Of a stretch of DNA of 7,738 nt, positions 869-7,738 are shown one piece after another. The position numbers were made by a program, and so were the translations under genes. The stretch's first letter is position 1; each line of letters starts with the position of its first letter. The DNA is taken from NCBI GenBank assembly GCA_009704155.1, contig WLES01000035.1, positions 1-7,738 of the forward strand. The letters are read 5' to 3'. Source of the DNA: Actinomycetota bacterium (GTDB lineage: Bacteria; Actinomycetota; Actinomycetes; Actinomycetales; Microbacteriaceae). The notes below the pieces were generated by a model. It was not told the origin of the DNA. It was given only the letters and a program-made list of their open reading frames with translations, and did no database searches.

Positions 869-1375
869 TTACCCACCCGCCGCAATGTCAGTAAACGACG
901 ACCACGAAAAATCTCCAGACGGCCCCCTGACGACAAGAGTGAAGTCGTTTCCGTCGCGGGGGTCAGGGACATGTAAACGAACCGACGCATTTTCGGAAAC
1001 CCACTCAACGAGGAGTCCATTCTCGTCTGAATCCCACTCGTAGTGACCATCAAACGCGTCGTGAAAACGGCGAAGGTTCGCCAGTTTCAGGGTCGCTCGC
1101 GTGAGCGACTCCCTGAGGGCCGCCGCCGTGTCGCTCCGTTCACCGACAAGTGCCGACATCGTGAACACGACGTGGACGTCGGTGAGCATCGCAATCACAC
1201 GATCCATGAAGTCATCAGCGTGGTCGAGGCTTGGCATCGCGTCGAGAACGATCGGGTCGTCCTCAAACTGGGTGGCTTCCGTCATGACGAGCAGGTCGTC
1301 AAGCAGTTCCGTGACGTCGCGAGGTGCATTGTTGAGGGTGCCGGTGTCGTCATACACAAACGTCATTGGTCGCAT
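869..1375 (-). CDS. Conserved-looking acidic protein of unknown function
   Basis: I do not recognise this 168-residue protein. It is rich in Asp and Glu, has no signal peptide or membrane segment, and should be soluble and cytoplasmic. The first two thirds look helical, with a run of charged heptad-like segments (about residues 38-105). The last third (about 110-160) alternates hydrophobic and charged residues as in a small beta sheet, with EWDSDENGLLVEWV and FTLVVRGPSGDFSW as landmarks. The ATG at 1375 is preferred because a near-perfect ribosome binding site, GAGGAGGGG at 1389-1381, sits 5 nt upstream; a second ATG three codons later is less well placed. It is the first gene of a unit with the MFS transporter, which starts 4 nt after its stop, and is divergent from xseA. 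A role with the transporter is possible but unsupported. Confidence 0.8.
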   Translation of the reverse strand: MRPMTFVYDDTGTLNNAPRDVTELLDDLLVMTEATQFEDDPIVLDAMPSLDHADDFMDRVIAMLTDVHVVFTMSALVGERSDTAAALRESLTRATLKLANLRRFHDAFDGHYEWDSDENGLLVEWVSENASVRLHVPDPRDGNDFTLVVRGPSGDFSWSSFTDIAAGG

Positions 1376-1380
1376 TGATT

Positions 1381-1389
1381 CCCCTCCTC
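1381..1389 (-). promoter_or_regulatory. Strong ribosome binding site for the 869-1375 gene
   Basis: Read on the minus strand this is GAGGAGGGG, highly complementary to the 3' end of 16S rRNA, with a 5-nt spacer before the ATG at 1375. It fixes the start of that gene. It contrasts with xseA on the other side of the intergenic region, which has no such site. Confidence 0.75.
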
Positions 1390-1402
1390 ACACAGTGCTA
1401 CC

Positions 1403-1408
1403 ACCGTA
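1403..1408 (-). promoter_or_regulatory. Possible -10 element for the minus-strand unit
   Basis: The minus strand reads TACGGT here, fitting the TANNNT pattern of actinobacterial -10 elements. A start of transcription about 6-7 nt downstream would leave a leader of about 20 nt that includes the strong ribosome binding site. No convincing -35 element is seen, so this is tentative. Confidence 0.35.
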
Positions 1409-1433
1409 TCGCGCAGAGGTCGATGCGCGCGGG

Positions 1434-1439
1434 TACGGT
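1434..1439 (+). promoter_or_regulatory. Possible -10 element for leaderless xseA
   Basis: TACGGT fits TANNNT and lies exactly 6 nt before the xseA ATG at 1446, the spacing expected if transcription begins at the A of the start codon. The absence of any ribosome binding site before xseA agrees with a leaderless mRNA, which is common in actinobacteria. No -35 match is seen. Confidence 0.45.
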
Positions 1440-1445
1440 TGATTC

Positions 1446-2642
1446 ATGCCCGCAGGACTGTCAGAAGAGGAGCCGCTGTCTATCAGCGCGGCGTCCGGCT
1501 TTGCGCGGCAGAAAATCTCCGCCTGGGGCGAGTTTTGGCTCGAAGGTGAAATCGCTGAGTGGCGACCCTGGCAGTCGATCGTGTTCTTCACACTCAAAGA
1601 CGACACGGCCAAGCTCGAAGGAAAACTCGACGCATCCACTGTCGCAGCATCCGGTGAACAATTCGCCAGCGGAGACAAGGTCCGAATGTTCGGGCGGTTT
1701 GACCTGTGGCCCAAGAACGGTGAAATCAAGTTCATTGCGACCGCGGTGCGAAACAAGGGCCTCGGAGACTTCATCGTGTCAATTGAGAAGCTGCGGGTTC
1801 AACTTCAGTCAGAGGGACTCTTCGACGAATCTCGCAAGGTAGCGCTGCCGTATCTGCCTCTCGGGATTGGGCTCATCACATCGAAGGACTCCGACGCCGA
1901 GAAGGACGTCATCACGAACGCGCGACTTCGCTGGTCGGATGTGAAGTTTGTCACTGTTCACACGGGCGTCTCTGGCGATGCGGCTGTCACGCAAATTCCA
2001 CGCGCCATCGCGGAACTCGACGCCAACCCCGACGTCGACGTCATCATCATCGCTCGCGGCGGAGGGGCCTTCATGGAACTTGTAGCGTTCAGTGATGAAC
2101 GAATCGTGCGCGCAGCTGCCGCATGTGTGACTCCTCTGGTCTCCGCCATCGGACATGAAAACGACAGGCCACTTCTCGACGAGGTTGCAGACCTCCGTGC
2201 CTCTACCCCAACCGACGCAGCCAAGCGGGTCGTTCCCGATGTTGCTGCAGAAATCAACGCCGTGACCCAACTCCAAGCCCGCGGTCGTTCGATCCTCACG
2301 ACGACGCTTGCCCATGAAATCGACCGAATCACGCAACTCGCATCGAGGCCCGTCATGACGAGCCCGCTCGCCTACATCGAGCGAGCGACCAGCGACCTCA
2401 TCAATTACCGGCACCGGGGCTTCACGCTTCTCGACTCAGCGATGCAGCGGGCAACCGATGCGGTTCATCGGCTCTCATCACAACTTCGAACCCTCTCCCC
2501 GCAAAACACGCTCGATCGTGGTTACGCGATTGTTCGTGACGCAGCTGGATCAATCGTCTCGAAACGGGGCAAAGTTTCAGGGGGAGACAACGTCACCCTT
2601 CAAGTTTCTGACGGGTCGATTTCGGCGACGGTAACCGACTGA
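1446..2642 (+). CDS. xseA: Exodeoxyribonuclease VII large subunit
   Basis: XseA is the catalytic large subunit of exonuclease VII, which together with several XseB subunits degrades single-stranded DNA from both ends and acts in the cytoplasm in repair and recombination. The 398-residue protein has an N-terminal OB fold (about 12-105; LEGEIAEWRPW at 32-42), then the catalytic core with AEKDVITNARLRW (151-163), the glycine-rich stretch IIARGGG (201-207), SAIGHEND (233-240) and DLRASTPTDAAKRVVPD (249-265). A helical region (about 265-345) and the conserved C-terminal LDRGYAIV (356-363) complete it. The length is normal for actinobacteria, shorter than the E. coli protein because of a shorter coiled coil. 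One oddity is GGGAFMEL (205-212), where most relatives read GGGSxEDL. The gene appears leaderless, heads the seven-gene run and is followed 16 nt later by its partner xseB. Confidence 0.97.
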   Translation: MPAGLSEEEPLSISAASGFARQKISAWGEFWLEGEIAEWRPWQSIVFFTLKDDTAKLEGKLDASTVAASGEQFASGDKVRMFGRFDLWPKNGEIKFIATAVRNKGLGDFIVSIEKLRVQLQSEGLFDESRKVALPYLPLGIGLITSKDSDAEKDVITNARLRWSDVKFVTVHTGVSGDAAVTQIPRAIAELDANPDVDVIIIARGGGAFMELVAFSDERIVRAAAACVTPLVSAIGHENDRPLLDEVADLRASTPTDAAKRVVPDVAAEINAVTQLQARGRSILTTTLAHEIDRITQLASRPVMTSPLAYIERATSDLINYRHRGFTLLDSAMQRATDAVHRLSSQLRTLSPQNTLDRGYAIVRDAAGSIVSKRGKVSGGDNVTLQVSDGSISATVTD

Positions 2643-2646
2643 ACGG

Positions 2647-2652
2647 TATCGT
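2647..2652 (+). promoter_or_regulatory. Possible internal -10 element before xseB
   Basis: TATCGT fits TANNNT and ends 6 nt before the ATG of xseB at 2659, and xseB has no clear ribosome binding site. An extra leaderless transcript starting at xseB is possible. The pattern is short and may be chance. Confidence 0.25.
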
Positions 2653-2658
2653 TGACGC

Positions 2659-2871
2659 ATGGCTGAGAAACTTCCCGACCCCGCGAGCATGAGCTATGAG
2701 GCCGCCCGCGACGAGTTGATGGCAATTGTTGCCACACTCGAAAAGGGAACGGCGTCTCTCGACGAATCGGTCACGCTCTGGGAGCGAGGCGAAGCACTCT
2801 CACAGCGATGTGAGGAATGGTTGGTCGGTGCCCGCGCACGGCTCGAAGCTGCTCGAAAGACGGCAGAGTGA
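2659..2871 (+). CDS. xseB: Exodeoxyribonuclease VII small subunit
   Basis: XseB is the small helical subunit that binds the coiled coil of XseA to form active exonuclease VII. The 70-residue protein has the family pattern: [20 protein letters not shown] (residues 11-30), then the [14 protein letters not shown] block (34-47) and the C-terminal helix with [13 protein letters not shown] (51-63). The length is typical. It follows xseA by 16 nt, and its stop overlaps the GTG start of the next gene by 4 nt (GTGA), so translation of the two is probably coupled. Confidence 0.95.
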
Positions 2872-3428
2872 GCGACGCGCGAAGTCGCCGAAACCGCCAA
2901 AACACTCTCACGCTCATTGGGGCGCTCGGGGCATCTCTCGCTATCGTTCTCCTGCTCGTACTCGTGACCGTTCGCCCAACGAACCTCGACAGGAACGAGG
3001 TTGACTGGGGCTCAGTGTGGACGACAGTAGCTGAGAACGAAGCGCTCGCCAACCCTGAATTTGTTGAGTCAGACGGCGACTGGTGGTCGAACCGTGCCGA
3101 ACTCATTGGTGGGCAATATCCCGTCTGGTACATCGGCTTCATTTCGCCGACGAACGGGTTCGTCGCTGTCGAGCAATTCGCCGGAGACCCGGCACCGGAA
3201 ATCGCCGCTCAACTCGACGACGTGACCCCGACTCAGGTAAGCCTCGGCGACGAGACGTGGACAGTGTTTGACCGCAGTGGAATGGACGATGTCGGCAACA
3301 GGCGCACGATCTACCTCCTCAGCGAAATTGGCGAAGGCGCTAATCTGATGGTGTCGGGCACAGCCCCAATCTCAGAAATCGAATTGGTTGCACTTCGTGC
3401 ACTGGAATCATTGGAGACATCCCCATGA
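2868..3428 (+). CDS. DUF4245 family membrane-anchored protein
   Basis: This 186-residue protein matches the actinobacterial DUF4245 family, whose function is unknown and which is usually found between exonuclease VII genes and fumC. A basic N-terminus (residues 1-11) is followed by one membrane segment (about 13-35), and the rest (about 36-186) should be outside the membrane. Landmarks are VDWGSVW (45-51), the [17 protein letters not shown] region (about 85-101) and WTVFDRSG. The GTG start at 2868 is chosen because it overlaps the xseB stop as GTGA, has GAAAGA 8 nt upstream, and places a basic segment directly before the membrane helix. An in-frame ATG at 2817 would lie deep inside xseB and is unlikely. 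Its stop overlaps the carbonic anhydrase start as ATGA. Confidence 0.88.
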
Positions 3429-4066
3429 GCAAAGCGCCTCGGACCCCTCGAGACGCGTGGCAGCTGCTCACAGAAGGGAATCGTCGATTCGTTTCAGGCT
3501 CGCCTGAACACCCTAACCAAGACGCCGCGCATCGAGATACGGTTGCCGACGGCCAAACGCCTTACGCCGCACTCTTCGGTTGCTCAGACTCTCGGCTCGG
3601 CGCTGAAATGATTTTCGACGTTGGCCTCGGCGACCTTTTTGTGGTTCGAAACATTGGCCAGACCATCTCCCCATCGGTCATCGGGTCCCTCGAATACGCT
3701 GTTGCGATTCTCAAGGTGCAGCTCATCCTCATTCTTGCCCACGACGGTTGCGGTGCGGTGAAAGAAGCAATCGACTCACTGCGGGACTCCGCAGTTCCAC
3801 TCCCACCCAACATCAGAGTCCTGACAAACACCATCCATCCAGCAATTCACCGGGTCATGGCGAGCCACGCGACCACCGTCATCGACGACATTCACATCGA
3901 TGAAGTCGGTGAGGAGCACCTCCGCGACACAATCGGCGAACTACTGGCAACCAGCGAGCTCATCGCCGAAGCCGTTGCTGCCGGAGGCATCGCGATCGTT
4001 GGAGCAACATACAACTTGAAGGAAGGCAACGTCTTGCCGTCCGTTGTCATTGGTGACATTGAATAA
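3425..4066 (+). CDS. Beta-class carbonic anhydrase
   Basis: Beta-carbonic anhydrases are zinc enzymes that interconvert carbon dioxide and bicarbonate in the cytoplasm, supplying bicarbonate for carboxylations. The 213-residue protein carries the zinc ligands Cys53 and Asp55 in CSDSR, with Arg57 forming the usual Asp-Arg pair, and His106 and Cys109 in [15 protein letters not shown] (73-79) and GSLEYAV (87-93) are also family hallmarks, and [10 protein letters not shown] near the C-terminus fits the last strand. There is no signal peptide. The ATG overlaps the DUF4245 stop as ATGA and has GGAG (3413-3416) 8 nt upstream. Position directly before fumC suggests co-expression with the TCA-cycle enzyme. 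HDGCG replaces the more usual small or basic residues after the zinc histidine, a mild variant seen in this enzyme class. Confidence 0.93.
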
Positions 4067-4067
4067 G

Positions 4068-4073
4068 AAGGAG
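4068..4073 (+). promoter_or_regulatory. Ribosome binding site that sets the fumC start
   Basis: AAGGAG lies 6 nt before the GTG at 4080, inside the short gap after the carbonic anhydrase stop. It supports that GTG over a possible upstream in-frame start at 4044, which would overlap the preceding gene. Confidence 0.8.
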
Positions 4074-4079
4074 AACCGC

Positions 4080-5477
4080 GTGAGCGAATATCGAATCGAA
4101 CATGACACCATGGGTGAGGTTCGCGTCCCCATCGACGCGTTGTACAGCGCTCAAACACAACGCGCCGTCGAAAACTTCCCGATCTCAGGCAGCGGACTGG
4201 AAGCGGCGCAAATCATCGCACTCGCTCACATCAAGCGCGCCGCTGCGATTGTCAACGAGCAGCTCGGAATCATCCCAGCCGATATTCGAGATGCCATTGT
4301 TGGTGCAGCCGACGACATCATCAGCGGAAAGCACCATGACCAGTTCCCCGTTGACACGTACCAAACGGGCTCTGGGACCTCGTCGAACATGAACATGAAC
4401 GAAGTGCTCGCGACCCTTGCGACAACTCGACGCGGAGACACTGTTCACCCCAACGACCACGTCAACGCGTCCCAATCGTCAAACGACGTGTTCCCGACAT
4501 CCGTTCACCTCGCCGTGACATCGGCCCTGCTCAACGATGCACTGCCCGCACTCGACCATCTCGCACAGGCTCTGGATGCGAAAGCTACTGCGTGGGCTGG
4601 GCACGTCAAGCCAGGGCGGACGCACCTCATGGACGCGACACCTGTCACCCTCGGCCAAGAGTTTGGCGGTTACGCGAGACAGATTCGACTCGGAATCGAA
4701 CGAATCGAGTCAACGATCTCGAGAGTCGCGGAAGTCCCACTCGGCGGCACCGCCGTTGGAACTGGAATCAACACTCCTCTTGGCTTCTCAGCTGCTGTCA
4801 TCGAAGAGCTCGCTTCTGCGACGGGGCTTCCCGTGAGCGAAGCTAAAGACCACTTCGAGGCACAGAGTGCACGCGACGGACTTGTTGAAGCCTCCGGCGC
4901 ACTCCGCGTGATCGCGGTGTCGCTCACCAAGATTTGCAACGACATCCGTTGGATGGGCTCCGGACCCAACACGGGAATCGCCGAAATCCACATTCCCGAC
5001 CTTCAGCCTGGTTCGTCGATCATGCCGGGCAAAGTCAACCCCGTCGTGCCAGAGGCTGTCCTCATGGTGTGTGCTCGAATCATTGGAAACGACGCCACCA
5101 TCGCGTGGGCTGGCGCATCAGGCTCATTCGAGCTGAACGTTGCCATCCCCGTTATGGGAACGTCACTACTCGAATCAATTCGATTGCTCGCAAATTCCAG
5201 CCGAGTTCTCGCCGACAAGACTGTGTCTGGTCTCGAGGCAAACGTTGAGCGGGCGGCAGCCCTCGCAGGGATGTCCCCGAGCATCGTGACACCGCTCAAC
5301 CGAATCATCGGTTATGAAGCGGCCGCTCAAATTGCCAAGCACTCCGTCAAGGCCGGAATCACAGTCCGTGACGCCGTCATCGAACTGGGCTATGTTGAGA
5401 GAGGGGACATCACCCTCGAACAACTGGACACGGCACTGAATCTGTTGTCCATGACCAAACCCGGCGTAGCTGGATAA
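4080..5477 (+). CDS. fumC: Class II fumarate hydratase
   Basis: Fumarase catalyses the reversible hydration of fumarate to malate in the TCA cycle; the class II enzyme is an iron-independent cytoplasmic homotetramer. From the GTG at 4080 the protein has 465 residues, the usual length. Visible motifs are [12 protein letters not shown] (98-109), [18 protein letters not shown] (123-140), the catalytic-histidine segment [11 protein letters not shown] (179-189, His182) and the superfamily signature [11 protein letters not shown] (311-321) holding the catalytic serine. The signature is followed by VVPE rather than TQ-containing residues, the form I associate with actinobacterial enzymes. A ribosome binding site at 4068-4073 supports the start. 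It sits 13 nt after the carbonic anhydrase and 14 nt before the heliorhodopsin. Aspartase belongs to the same superfamily, but the HLMDATP segment and the context favour fumarase. Confidence 0.95.
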
Positions 5478-5478
5478 C

Positions 5479-5484
5479 GAAAGG
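5479..5484 (+). promoter_or_regulatory. Ribosome binding site for heliorhodopsin
   Basis: GAAAGG begins immediately after the fumC stop and lies 7 nt before the GTG start at 5492. This gives the heliorhodopsin its own translation start within the fumC transcript and fixes the choice of the GTG codon. Confidence 0.7.
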
Positions 5485-5491
5485 CACCACC

Positions 5492-6295
5492 GTGGCACGA
5501 ATTGAACGAACCATCGATCAACAGATCGGTCGGCTCCGCGCCTACAACATTGTCGCAGGACTAGTCCACCTCCTTCAGGGACTGGCATTCCTCTTTGCGC
5601 TCACTCTGATCAGCTCCCCCGTCTTGTTCCCCGTCACGGTTGACTACATGACCGGCCCTCCCGGAGTAAACCTGCCAACTGAGCGGGTCGTGCTTTTCGA
5701 AGTTGACCTCGGTCTCGGCGTCGTGACGTTCCTGTTCCTGTCGGCGTTCTTCCACTTCCTCATCTCGTCTCCTGGAGTCTTCCAGCGTTACGGCCGTGGA
5801 CTGAAAGACAATCACAACTACTTCCGCTGGACCGAGTACTCACTCAGTTCGTCAGTGATGATCTGGCTCATCGCGCAACTCACGGGAAGTTCCGACTTCG
5901 GCGCGCTCTTTGGCATCTTCGCCGTCAACGCGTCGATGATCATGTTCGGTGCGCTTCAGGAGAAGTATGAGAAGCCCGGCAACGGAAAACTCCTTCCCTT
6001 CATCTTTGGTTGCCTCACCGGAATCGTCCCGTGGCTCATCGTGCTCGTCTATACGCTCCAGCCAGGATCGGAAAGTGCAGCTGAGGTTCCTGGATTCGTC
6101 ATCGGAATCATCATCTCCCTCTTCCTTTTCTTCAACACCTTTGCGCTCAACCAGTGGTTGCAGTACAAGCAGGTCGGCGCGTGGAAGAGCTACATCCGCG
6201 GTGAGCGCATGTACATCACGCTGAGCCTCGTAGCCAAGAGCGTTCTCGCGTGGCAGGTGTTCTCCGGAGCACTCGTTCCACTCTTTGTCGACTAG
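5492..6295 (+). CDS. Heliorhodopsin
   Basis: Heliorhodopsins are seven-helix retinal proteins only distantly related to type 1 rhodopsins. They sit inverted in the membrane (N-terminus inside), have slow photocycles and generally do not pump ions, so a sensory or regulatory role is assumed. This 267-residue protein aligns along its length with the actinobacterial prototype 48C12 as I recall it. Key features are the retinal Schiff-base lysine Lys249 in SLVAKSVLAWQ, the counterion Glu115 in FRWTEYSLSSS (111-121), the conserved His26 and His88 (equivalent to H23 and H80), the TGPPG turn (54-58) of the A-B loop, NASMIMFG (146-153), QEKY (156-159), and the GIIISLFLFFN stretch (205-215). Helices fall at about 20-42, 70-92, 112-131, 134-154, 168-189, 199-223 and 240-260. 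It starts 14 nt after fumC with a good ribosome binding site, and a DoxX-like gene follows 4 nt later. No retinal synthesis gene is nearby. Confidence 0.97.
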   Translation: MARIERTIDQQIGRLRAYNIVAGLVHLLQGLAFLFALTLISSPVLFPVTVDYMTGPPGVNLPTERVVLFEVDLGLGVVTFLFLSAFFHFLISSPGVFQRYGRGLKDNHNYFRWTEYSLSSSVMIWLIAQLTGSSDFGALFGIFAVNASMIMFGALQEKYEKPGNGKLLPFIFGCLTGIVPWLIVLVYTLQPGSESAAEVPGFVIGIIISLFLFFNTFALNQWLQYKQVGAWKSYIRGERMYITLSLVAKSVLAWQVFSGALVPLFVD

Positions 6296-6299
6296 TCGA

Positions 6300-6746
6300 A
6301 TGAACTCGCGGACCATTGGGTGGTGGCTTCGGGCCGCAGCTCGAACAGCCCTGGGTGTGGCTCTCACCTTCGCCGGGTGGAGCCACCTCACGTCCGCGCG
6401 CGCTGAATTTCAAGCGCAAGTTCCGCCGTGGGTTCCACTCGAGGCTGACTTCGTTGTCCTCGCTTCAGGTGTCGTCGAAATTGCTCTCGGTCTTTCGCTG
6501 ATTGTTCTCGTTCGGTTACAGAAGTGGGTTGGCCTCGCGACCGCACTATTCTTTATCGCGATTTTCCCCGGGAACATCTCGCAGTATGTCAACGGAATCG
6601 ACGCTTTCGGGCTTGATACTGATCAGGCTCGATTCACCCGCCTGTTCTTCCAGCCTGTTCTCGTCTTATGGGCATTGTGGTCTACTAGTGCTTGGCGACT
6701 TTGGCGACGACGGGCTCAGAACAGCTCGAACGAAACCACGGGTTAA
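6300..6746 (+). CDS. DoxX-like integral membrane protein
   Basis: The 148-residue protein fits the DoxX/MauE-like group of small four-helix membrane proteins. Hydrophobic helices lie at about residues 12-30, 50-71, 75-92 and 115-132. The first helix ends in AGWSHLTSARAEFQAQVP (25-42), typical of DoxX proteins, and the second holds ASGVVEIALGLSL (55-67). The C-terminus is basic (RLWRRR, 133-138) and probably cytoplasmic. In mycobacteria a DoxX protein forms a membrane complex with superoxide dismutase and a thiosulfate sulfurtransferase in oxidative-stress defence; transfer of that role to this protein is only inference. The ATG at 6300 begins 4 nt after the heliorhodopsin stop and has no obvious ribosome binding site, suggesting translational coupling. 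A TTG at 6285 overlapping the heliorhodopsin is a weaker alternative. It is the last gene of the plus-strand run. Confidence 0.82.
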   Translation: MNSRTIGWWLRAAARTALGVALTFAGWSHLTSARAEFQAQVPPWVPLEADFVVLASGVVEIALGLSLIVLVRLQKWVGLATALFFIAIFPGNISQYVNGIDAFGLDTDQARFTRLFFQPVLVLWALWSTSAWRLWRRRAQNSSNETTG

Positions 6747-6767
6747 CTGCTGATTTAGCTCACCTAG

Positions 6768-6787
6768 ACAGGGGTGTTTGCACCTGT
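6768..6787 (+). other. Weak stem-loop after the DoxX-like gene
   Basis: ACA (6768-6770) and GGTG (6773-6776) can pair with CACC (6781-6784) and TGT (6785-6787) around a TTTG loop, with a two-base GG bulge. It lies 21 nt after the stop of the last gene of the run, a plausible place for transcription end or mRNA stabilisation. There is no T-tract, so it is not a standard intrinsic terminator. Confidence 0.3.
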
Positions 6788-6794
6788 TATTCGA

Positions 6795-6842
6795 TTGCAA
6801 CCCCTCGACCAGCAGCCGTGTCCTACGTTGTGAGGGGCGCAA
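6795..6842. repeat. Imperfect inverted repeat with 25-nt loop
   Basis: TTGC-aa-CCCCTC (6795-6806) faces GAGGGG-c-GCAA (6832-6842): 10 base pairs with a small internal loop and a 25-nt centre. The CCCC of the left arm can instead pair with GGGGT at 6771-6775, with TGCA at 6779-6782 pairing with TGCA at 6796-6799, so two exclusive folds are possible. No T-tract follows on either strand. It could be an operator, an RNA switch or leader for the gene at 6860, or chance. The 6747-6859 gap shows no other gene. Confidence 0.4.
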
Positions 6843-6847
6843 AACTT

Positions 6848-6853
6848 TAGGCT
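6848..6853 (+). promoter_or_regulatory. Possible -10 element for the small gene at 6860
   Basis: TAGGCT fits TANNNT and ends 6 nt before the GTG at 6860, the same leaderless spacing seen before xseA. A TTGTGA at 6828-6833 could be a poor -35 element, but its 14-nt spacing is short. The start has no good ribosome binding site. Confidence 0.3.
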
Positions 6854-6859
6854 GAATTC

Positions 6860-7045
6860 GTGGCCGACAATTACGGGGATGACCTTCGCGAATCGCTTCG
6901 ACAGTTCAAAGAACACTTGTCTCTCAGCAGCGATGCGCTAGAGCCAAGGTCTCCCCCGGTCCAGACGACGAGCGCTGTGTCGGCCGAACAGTTGCGGCAG
7001 AAAGAAGGCATCCCCTACTTTGTCTCAATTCCCGATCGCGCATAG
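6860..7045 (+). CDS. Small hypothetical protein
   Basis: The 61-residue product is not recognised. It begins with an acidic, probably helical segment (DNYGDDLRESLRQFKEHLSL, residues 3-22), continues with a Pro/Ser/Thr-rich linker (about 28-39) and a second short helix (about 41-49), and ends in EGIPYFVSIPDRA. There is no membrane segment or signal peptide. The GTG start is supported only by a possible leaderless promoter; codon choice looks like that of its neighbours. It ends 3 nt before the stop of the convergent histidine-kinase-like gene, a tight fit that favours a real coding boundary. It may be a small soluble regulatory or adaptor protein, but nothing in the sequence proves this or that the frame is translated. 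Confidence 0.5.
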   Translation: MADNYGDDLRESLRQFKEHLSLSSDALEPRSPPVQTTSAVSAEQLRQKEGIPYFVSIPDRA

Positions 7046-7048
7046 GTC

Positions 7049-7738
7049 TTAGGCGACTTCGGACGGTACGTCCACAGTTTTGCGAGTTTTCGCGGCACCA
7101 GCATCCCTCTGCAACGGGATTGCCCCGGTGAGTCGGTATTCCGTCGGTGTGACGGTGAGATGCCTGTCGAGTAGCACCGACTCGACAAGTTCAGAACCGA
7201 CCCCACCCGTCGAACTCGCGGCACGTGTGTCCTTCGTGGCTTCTCCCATCGTCGCAGGGGAGTTCTCTTCACCTTCATCATTCCAACGCGAATTTGCTAA
7301 ACACATTTCGACGCGATCCTCTTTTGCGCTGAGCACCAGGTTCACGTGCTCCGCCCGTCCGTGCTTGACCGCGTTCACGACAAACTCCGTGAGAACCTCC
7401 CTCGTCACGGCAAGACAAATCGGGTCAGCGTTGATGGCGCGTCGAGTATTTTCGGCACATTCGAACTCCAGCGCGAGGAATGAACCCCATCGGTCGTTCA
7501 GTGCCTCGCGAAACAATTCGAGCGTTGCACCCATTTTTGGTGTTCCGATTCGACTAGGAACGTCTCGGAGCAAGTCTTGGACTTCTGCGACAACCGTCTC
7601 CACGTCGTCATCAGCGTCGATCGCTCGTTGAATTCGCAACTGGGCGACGAGGACAAGTGACTGCACCTCTCCGTGAAGAAAGGTGGCCAGGTTTCGTTGT
7701 TCAACCCACGCTTGGCAGTTGATCCTCGCGATTTTCCA
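7049..7738 (-). CDS. Sensor histidine kinase-like protein, C-terminal part (5' end outside window)
   Basis: The frame is open from the right edge to a TAA at 7049-7051, giving the last 229 residues. A GTG at 7666 is in frame, but the reading frame continues upstream with a conserved-looking segment, so the protein is partial rather than starting there. That segment reads NLATFLHGEVQSLVL, like the phosphoacceptor helix of actinobacterial kinases with an LHGxVQ motif; the histidine codon is at 7673-7675. The ATPase domain follows, with an N-box EFVVNAVKHG (Asn codon 7373-7375) and a glycine-rich GGVGSELVESV near 7175-7207. The usual DxGxG box is not apparent; LANSRW stands about where it should be. 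Such kinases phosphorylate a response regulator, not present here, and the sensor domain is beyond the edge. It could also be a kinase-like protein with an altered ATP site. Confidence 0.75.
   Translation of the reverse strand, partial: WKIARINCQAWVEQRNLATFLHGEVQSLVLVAQLRIQRAIDADDDVETVVAEVQDLLRDVPSRIGTPKMGATLELFREALNDRWGSFLALEFECAENTRRAINADPICLAVTREVLTEFVVNAVKHGRAEHVNLVLSAKEDRVEMCLANSRWNDEGEENSPATMGEATKDTRAASSTGGVGSELVESVLLDRHLTVTPTEYRLTGAIPLQRDAGAAKTRKTVDVPSEVA

What the first reader, a model, noticed from the sequence alone, without database searches (positions are those of the whole stretch)
5492..6295. Heliorhodopsin embedded at the end of an exonuclease VII-carbonic anhydrase-fumarase run
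A light-responsive retinal protein starts 14 nt after fumC in a run of seven closely packed same-strand genes, so it is probably transcribed with housekeeping metabolism. Heliorhodopsin function is still debated, and stable placement with fumarase and carbonic anhydrase would hint at light-dependent tuning of central carbon metabolism. The rhodopsin assignment rests on visible motifs (Lys249, Glu115, His26, His88); the metabolic link is inference.
Basis: partly seen in the sequence, partly recalled or inferred. Interest (0 to 1): 0.8.

Follow-up and report, generated by a model that had tools for sequence, protein, structure and literature searches.

The report
Heliorhodopsin lodged behind fumarase operon
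A gene for heliorhodopsin, a protein predicted to sense light with retinal, sits directly behind the fumarase gene in two species of one bacterial genus and was not found behind it in the other relatives examined, so the two genes are likely copied onto one RNA but probably have no conserved working link.

Summary
In detail: a full-length heliorhodopsin (HeR) gene at 5492-6295 starts 14 nt after fumC, in a run of seven same-strand genes (xseA, xseB, DUF4245, beta-carbonic anhydrase, fumC, HeR, DoxX-like). The metabolic reading does not hold up. The xse/carbonic anhydrase/fumC run also stands without HeR in outgroup genomes, two of which carry HeR on another contig. Among 203 distinct HeR sequences compared, the fumC neighbour was found only in the window and one congener. 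In that genus 2 of 15 genomes carry HeR; in 7 HeR-less ones fumC is followed directly by the DoxX-like gene, so HeR is an optional cassette between the two. The congener with HeR has an HeR-less sister species. HeR is under purifying selection, so it looks like a working gene. Best account: an ordinary photosensory-type HeR, likely co-transcribed with a housekeeping operon through lineage history, not a conserved light switch on fumarase. Two weak leads remain: DoxX-like genes lie near HeR in five genera, and in three Aquiluna-type loci HeR lies near an aspartase-like gene, another fumarate enzyme. Two models of retinal-forming enzymes found nothing in the genus.

The parts
5492..6295 (+). heliorhodopsin (HeR), 267 aa, GTG start
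5479..5484 (+). GAAAGG, Shine-Dalgarno-like, 7 nt before the HeR start
   Evidence: sequence; role inferred
4080..5477 (+). fumC, class II fumarase, 465 aa
3425..4066 (+). beta-carbonic anhydrase, 213 aa
   Evidence: Pfam Pro_CA 122 bits; best solved match 2a5v, E 4e-50
2868..3428 (+). DUF4245 protein
2659..2871 (+). xseB, exonuclease VII small subunit
1446..2642 (+). xseA, exonuclease VII large subunit
6300..6746 (+). DoxX-like small membrane protein, ATG 4 nt after the HeR stop; follows fumC directly in 7 HeR-less congeners
   Evidence: PF07681 20.0 bits, below the cut-off of 23.6, over it (31.6) in relative P0023

Best explanation
This is a heliorhodopsin gene standing between fumC and a DoxX-like gene at the end of an exonuclease VII-carbonic anhydrase-fumarase run, a place it holds in two species of one genus, where it is likely transcribed with the run and predicted to act as a retinal-based light sensor that probably has no conserved tie to fumarase. 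Shown: family, key residues, gene order, its absence from this site in close relatives, purifying selection. Inferred: a shared transcript; its own ribosome start (GAAAGG before GTG); retinal on Lys249, taken up from outside or made by an unrecognised enzyme; [quoted passage not shown] a protein partner, if any, not established. Of the neighbours, the DoxX-like gene is a slightly better partner candidate than fumarase, because it recurs near HeR in other genera.
For: Family and residues. The genus has HeR in 2 of 15 genomes, both between fumC and DoxX-like. Of the 13 HeR-less genomes, 7 have fumC followed by DoxX-like after 3-4 nt, 3 have fumC without DoxX-like behind it, and 3 cannot be read. 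251 loci gave 203 distinct HeR; carbonic anhydrase, xse genes and a true fumC beside HeR only in the window and G010 (the three other fumC-query matches there are aspartase-like). The five-gene run stands in order in 3 of 4 outgroup genomes, G140, G284 and G318 (G390 gave no carbonic anhydrase match), of which G284 and G318 carry HeR on other contigs. G007 (no HeR) is sister of G010 (HeR) with support 100. HeR dN/dS 0.105 between G000 and G010. Papers: varied HeR neighbours (PMC8612252, sections 7-8; PMC11109279, section 6).
Against: No transcript data exist here; a separate promoter is not excluded by a consensus scan. Two species diverged enough for 85% HeR identity keep the same position, which could mean selection for it. 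Three HeR loci lie near an aspartase-like gene, a second fumarate enzyme. Most genomes of the genus are fragmented and incomplete; G000 is 65% complete, so absence of retinal enzymes there is weak evidence. 39 of the 203 HeR have less than 1.5 kb upstream.
Confidence: 0.77

Rival explanations
1. HeR is a light-dependent regulator of fumarase (or carbonic anhydrase) in this genus, as AbHeR is reported to be a regulator of glutamine synthetase.
For: Tight same-strand adjacency kept in two species; HeR under purifying selection; published precedent of HeR binding an operon neighbour (PMC9529153, abstract and passages); three HeR loci near an aspartase-like gene.
Against: Adjacency found for 2 of 203 distinct HeR; absent in the sister species of G010 with the operon intact; HeR-bearing G284 and G318 keep the operon without HeR in it. 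In Aurantimicrobium photophilum heR and a class II fumarate hydratase have distant locus tags (PMC8591293 passages).
Confidence: 0.07
2. HeR works with the DoxX-like membrane protein 4 nt downstream; the HeR-DoxX pair is the functional unit and fumC is only the upstream neighbour.
For: Ten DoxX-like cluster members (nine genomes; G603 counted twice) within about 5 kb of 151 distinct survey HeR, in 5 of 52 genera and 2 families, in several orientations; divergent with about 45-70 nt between in L271 and L280. PMC8612252 Fig. 3 legend names a glutaredoxin-COG4270 fusion gene among genes that may be transcribed with HeR; whether this DoxX-like protein is COG4270 was not tested.
Against: The DoxX-like family is common without HeR: 235 of 398 family genomes, and it follows fumC without HeR in 7 congeners. 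Several other families reach 4 genera and large ones 6-10, so 5 is only slightly above background.
Confidence: 0.15
3. The HeR gene is a recent transfer into one of the two species by recombination across the shared operon, and has no settled role there.
For: HeR synonymous divergence between G000 and G010 (dS 1.0) is lower than that of DUF4245 1.4, fumC 1.7, DoxX-like 2.1, carbonic anhydrase 3.1; operon genes and other markers place G000 differently.
Against: HeR protein identity of 85% lies between those of fumC (90%) and DoxX-like (76%); dS values this high are imprecise; dN/dS 0.105 says the gene is kept.
Confidence: 0.2

Closest known systems
Heliorhodopsin 48C12 (PDB 6su3)
   Same: aligned over window residues 10-264, E 3.7e-87; 15 residues named for 48C12 in passages of PMC9726877 (Asn16, His23, Gln26, Ser76, His80, Tyr92, Arg104, Glu107, Tyr108, Ser111, Glu149, Glu230, Ser237, Lys241, Trp246) have identical residues at the aligned window positions
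   Different: five extra residues between about 35 and 66 of the window protein; different gene neighbourhood
AbHeR-glutamine synthetase operon (PMC9529153, abstract and passages seen)
   Same: actinobacterial HeR downstream of a metabolic enzyme in a presumed operon
   Different: there binding and activity change were measured; here the enzyme is fumarase, nothing is measured and the pairing was found in one genus only
HeR operon groups of PMC8612252 (sections 7-8) and PMC11109279 (section 6)
   Same: HeR in short-gap same-strand runs with changing neighbours
   Different: the words fumarase, fumarate and carbonic anhydrase do not occur in either main text; figures and supplementary tables could not be read

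Membership tests
heliorhodopsin | match to curated family models | tested here: met
heliorhodopsin | retinal-binding Lys, Glu counterion, the two His of the proton path | tested here: met
   K249, E115, H88, H26
heliorhodopsin | inverted seven-helix topology | not tested
   expected from similarity to 48C12 only
heliorhodopsin | binds retinal and runs a photocycle | not testable with these tools
   needs expression and spectroscopy
HeR regulating its operon neighbour (AbHeR-GS type) | partner gene adjacent to HeR across genera | tested here: not met
   2 of 203 distinct HeR, one genus
HeR regulating its operon neighbour (AbHeR-GS type) | shared transcript | tested here: inconclusive
   14-nt gap; no separating site found by consensus scan
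HeR regulating its operon neighbour (AbHeR-GS type) | binding and activity change of the partner | not testable with these tools
   needs purified proteins
DoxX (downstream gene) | Pfam DoxX over its cut-off | tested here: inconclusive
   20.0 bits against 23.6; relative P0023 31.6 bits

The most novel reading that the evidence does not exclude
Heliorhodopsins of these aquatic actinobacteria tune the fumarate node by light: here HeR acts on the fumarase made from the same transcript, in Aquiluna on the aspartase encoded beside it, and bicarbonate from the operon's carbonic anhydrase is the ligand of the cytoplasmic cavity that others have proposed could hold carbonate.
Probability: 0.04. Interest if true: 0.8.

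Novelty: new member of a known kind. Interest (0 to 1): 0.3.

Why it matters
What HeR does is still debated, and gene neighbours have been a main lead. This case shows how far a neighbour can mislead: a tight, convincing operon position turns out to be a genus-level option, with the same site readable with and without HeR in close relatives. Those paired species are a natural with/without experiment for asking what HeR changes. If the fumarate reading were true it would add a central-carbon enzyme to the reported HeR partners.

Tried and rejected
Conserved fumC adjacency across actinobacteria: rejected. A carbonic anhydrase or exonuclease VII link: rejected by the same comparison. fumC being an aspartase: rejected. 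fumC-DoxX adjacency as an old family trait: by eye, in rows listed by both that I compared (G087, G089, G093, G097, G159, G251, G291) the two genes are about 20 kb or more apart; both lists are cut off and I did not compute it for all rows. RNA element in the window: none at gathering score. One search read several reverse-strand loci in the wrong orientation; its junction output is discarded and replaced. The gene clusters rest on a crude ORF finder, include shadow frames, and miss some DoxX-like genes that tblastn finds (L064, L070). The class and family genome samples are drawn evenly by the tool, not complete. Left out of the neighbourhood comparison: 14 of 95 places (68 bits or less) and 9 places (G478, G585, G709, G764, G766, G422:C251, G760:C1 and two of G638, all partial matches). 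One search found 184 relatives and kept the best 80. Literature, held library only: heliorhodopsin with fumarase 0 papers, with DoxX 0 papers; a five-term search gave 635 papers of which 20 were listed, none holding heliorhodopsin. Supplementary tables were not readable, so an earlier listing of this pairing is not excluded.

Full report
What is there. The window encodes, on the + strand, xseA (1446-2642), xseB (2659-2871), a DUF4245 protein (2868-3428), a beta-carbonic anhydrase (3425-4066), fumC (4080-5477), a heliorhodopsin (5492-6295) and a DoxX-like small membrane protein (6300-6746). The heliorhodopsin is unambiguous: Pfam 315.9 bits, NCBIfam equivalog 339.9 bits, PDB 48C12 at E 3.7e-87. 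His26, His88, Glu115 and Lys249 align with His23, His80, Glu107 and Lys241; by the same alignment 11 further residues named for 48C12 in passages of PMC9726877 are kept too: Asn19, Gln29, Ser84, Tyr100, Arg112, Tyr116, Ser119, Glu157, Glu238, Ser245, Trp254.

Where it lies. The genome (G000) has 918,447 bases in 151 contigs and is 65% complete. Its genus has no name in my results; the contig of the congener G010 has the length of CAJAKC010000009.1, an uncultured Microbacteriaceae bacterium, isolate Loc081215-9m_bin-1979, with the same HeR DNA.

Genus comparison. HeR is in 2 of 15 genomes of the genus. In both, the order is fumC-HeR-DoxX-like, with 14 nt between fumC and HeR in each; in G010 the contig ends after xseB, so xseA is not seen there. 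Of the 13 others, 7 (G003, G004, G007, G009, G011, G012, G013) have fumC followed by the DoxX-like gene, with a start codon 3-4 nt after the fumC stop, 3 (G001, G005, G006) have fumC and no DoxX-like gene behind it, and 3 (G002, G008, G014) cannot be read because the contig ends there or fumC was not found. HeR is thus a cassette at one site, present or absent.

History. G007 (no HeR) is sister of G010 (HeR) with support 100 in the concatenated trees with and without xseA and in the small DoxX-like tree. The place of G000 conflicts: operon genes without xseA put it next to G007 and G010 (no support value printed for that node), while xseA and an aspartase-like marker put it with other species (support 99 each). 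The two HeR proteins, with their near-identical database relatives, form one clade with support 100. Vertical descent needs at least one loss (G007), two or more if the second placement is right; transfer within the genus is the alternative, and HeR has a lower synonymous divergence than the four neighbours measured (1.0 against 1.4-3.1). dN/dS of 0.105 says the gene is kept functional.

Wider comparison. In the family sample, 80 of 398 genomes have a match to the HeR model, 77 over its cut-off; in the class sample, 77 of 394. I collected 80 neighbourhoods from the family survey (14 weak places left out), 80 named loci (the best 80 of 184) and 90 loci of the class survey (9 partial places left out). 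With the window these are 251 loci and 203 distinct HeR DNA sequences, 182 of them over 150 bits against the window HeR; 164 of the 203 have at least 1.5 kb upstream and 195 at least 0.5 kb. Carbonic anhydrase, DUF4245 and xse genes lie beside HeR only in the window and G010. The fumC query also matched near HeR in L177, L181 and L216 at 40-41%, but those genes are aspartase-like (below). The run itself is older than the genus: 3 of 4 outgroup genomes (G140, G284, G318) have matches to all five genes in the same order, with about 1.6 kb between xseA and xseB in G140; G390 gave no carbonic anhydrase match. G284 and G318 carry HeR on other contigs. In Aurantimicrobium photophilum PMC8591293 gives heR as AURMO_01564 and a class II fumarate hydratase as AURMO_01262 (passages).

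Other neighbours. A DoxX-like cluster of ten members (nine genomes, G603 counted twice) lies within about 5 kb of 151 distinct survey HeR, in 5 of 52 genera and 2 families. Four large families reach 6-10 genera and several others 4, so this is a lead, not a result. It fits the COG4270 note in PMC8612252 (Fig. 3 legend) if the two families are the same, which I did not test. In 3 of the 203 distinct HeR loci (L181 and L177, titled Aquiluna, and L216, titled Microbacteriaceae bacterium) a gene 54% identical to the aspartase-like gene of G000, against 40-41% to fumC, lies upstream of HeR on the opposite strand: 85 and 108 nt away in L181 and L216, one gene away in L177. A third locus titled Aquiluna (L208, 828 nt upstream) shows none. 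The G000 gene itself passes an aspartase subfamily cut-off but not the aspA equivalog one. Both aspartase and fumarase handle fumarate (established enzymology); the coincidence was seen after the fact and may be one event.

Retinal. The Brp/Blh-type model PF15461 finds nothing in 15 genomes of the genus, though the same search passes the cut-off in 10 of 32 HeR-bearing genomes (30 besides G000 and G010; the 6 of genus g60, the Aurantimicrobium genus, also show none). The RPE65 model also finds nothing in 15 (two of 14 control genomes ring). G010, 94% complete, has HeR and a type-1 rhodopsin; type-1 rhodopsins are in 7 of 15 genomes. Retinal is either taken up or made by an enzyme not recognised here.

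Transcription. The consensus scan finds no promoter-like site on either strand in 1300-7100 (1.4 expected in shuffles) and no + strand terminator-like site between fumC and HeR; it does list two weak + strand ones inside HeR (5670, 6266) and a - strand one at the junction (5498-5484), with 7 in all against 4.7 expected. HeR has GAAAGG seven bases before its start; G010 has AAAGGA in its 14-nt gap. Co-transcription is likely but unproven.

Verdict. A genuine, functional-looking heliorhodopsin in an unusual but genus-bound place. The published HeR-partner cases (PMC9529153 passages; PMC11109279 section 6) keep the idea testable, and the HeR-less sister species makes a clean comparison.

Noticed in passing
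L181:1687-3078 (-) with HeR 3164-3970 (+); L216:2211-3605 (-) with HeR 3714-4520 (+); L177:5483-6871 (-) with HeR 8001-8807 (+): Aquiluna-type heliorhodopsin genes lie near a divergent aspartase-like gene, a second fumarate-handling enzyme near a heliorhodopsin.
   Followed up: partly
L271, L280 (HeR at about 5015 and 5075), L270: In a genus of another family (f33 g170) the DoxX-like gene is divergent from heliorhodopsin with about 45-70 nt between; in L270 two small ORFs lie between them.
   Followed up: partly
genus of the window, 15 genomes: Type-1 rhodopsin genes in 7 of 15 genomes and heliorhodopsin in 2, yet no match to two retinal-forming oxygenase models: retinal source unknown.
   Followed up: partly
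L325 (G007) xseA: xseA of G007 is only 56% identical to the window's, against 63-71% in the other congeners except G001 (55%), while its DUF4245, carbonic anhydrase and fumC are the closest of all: a hint of recombination within the run.
   Followed up: no
window 7049-7738 (-): Protein with a weak histidine-kinase-type ATPase domain (PF13581, below cut-off), cut by the contig end; possible regulator next to the run.
   Followed up: no
window 869-1375 (-): 168-aa protein with no Pfam or NCBIfam match at E 0.001, divergent from xseA; relatives (61-69%) were found beside xseA in 9 congeners.
   Followed up: no
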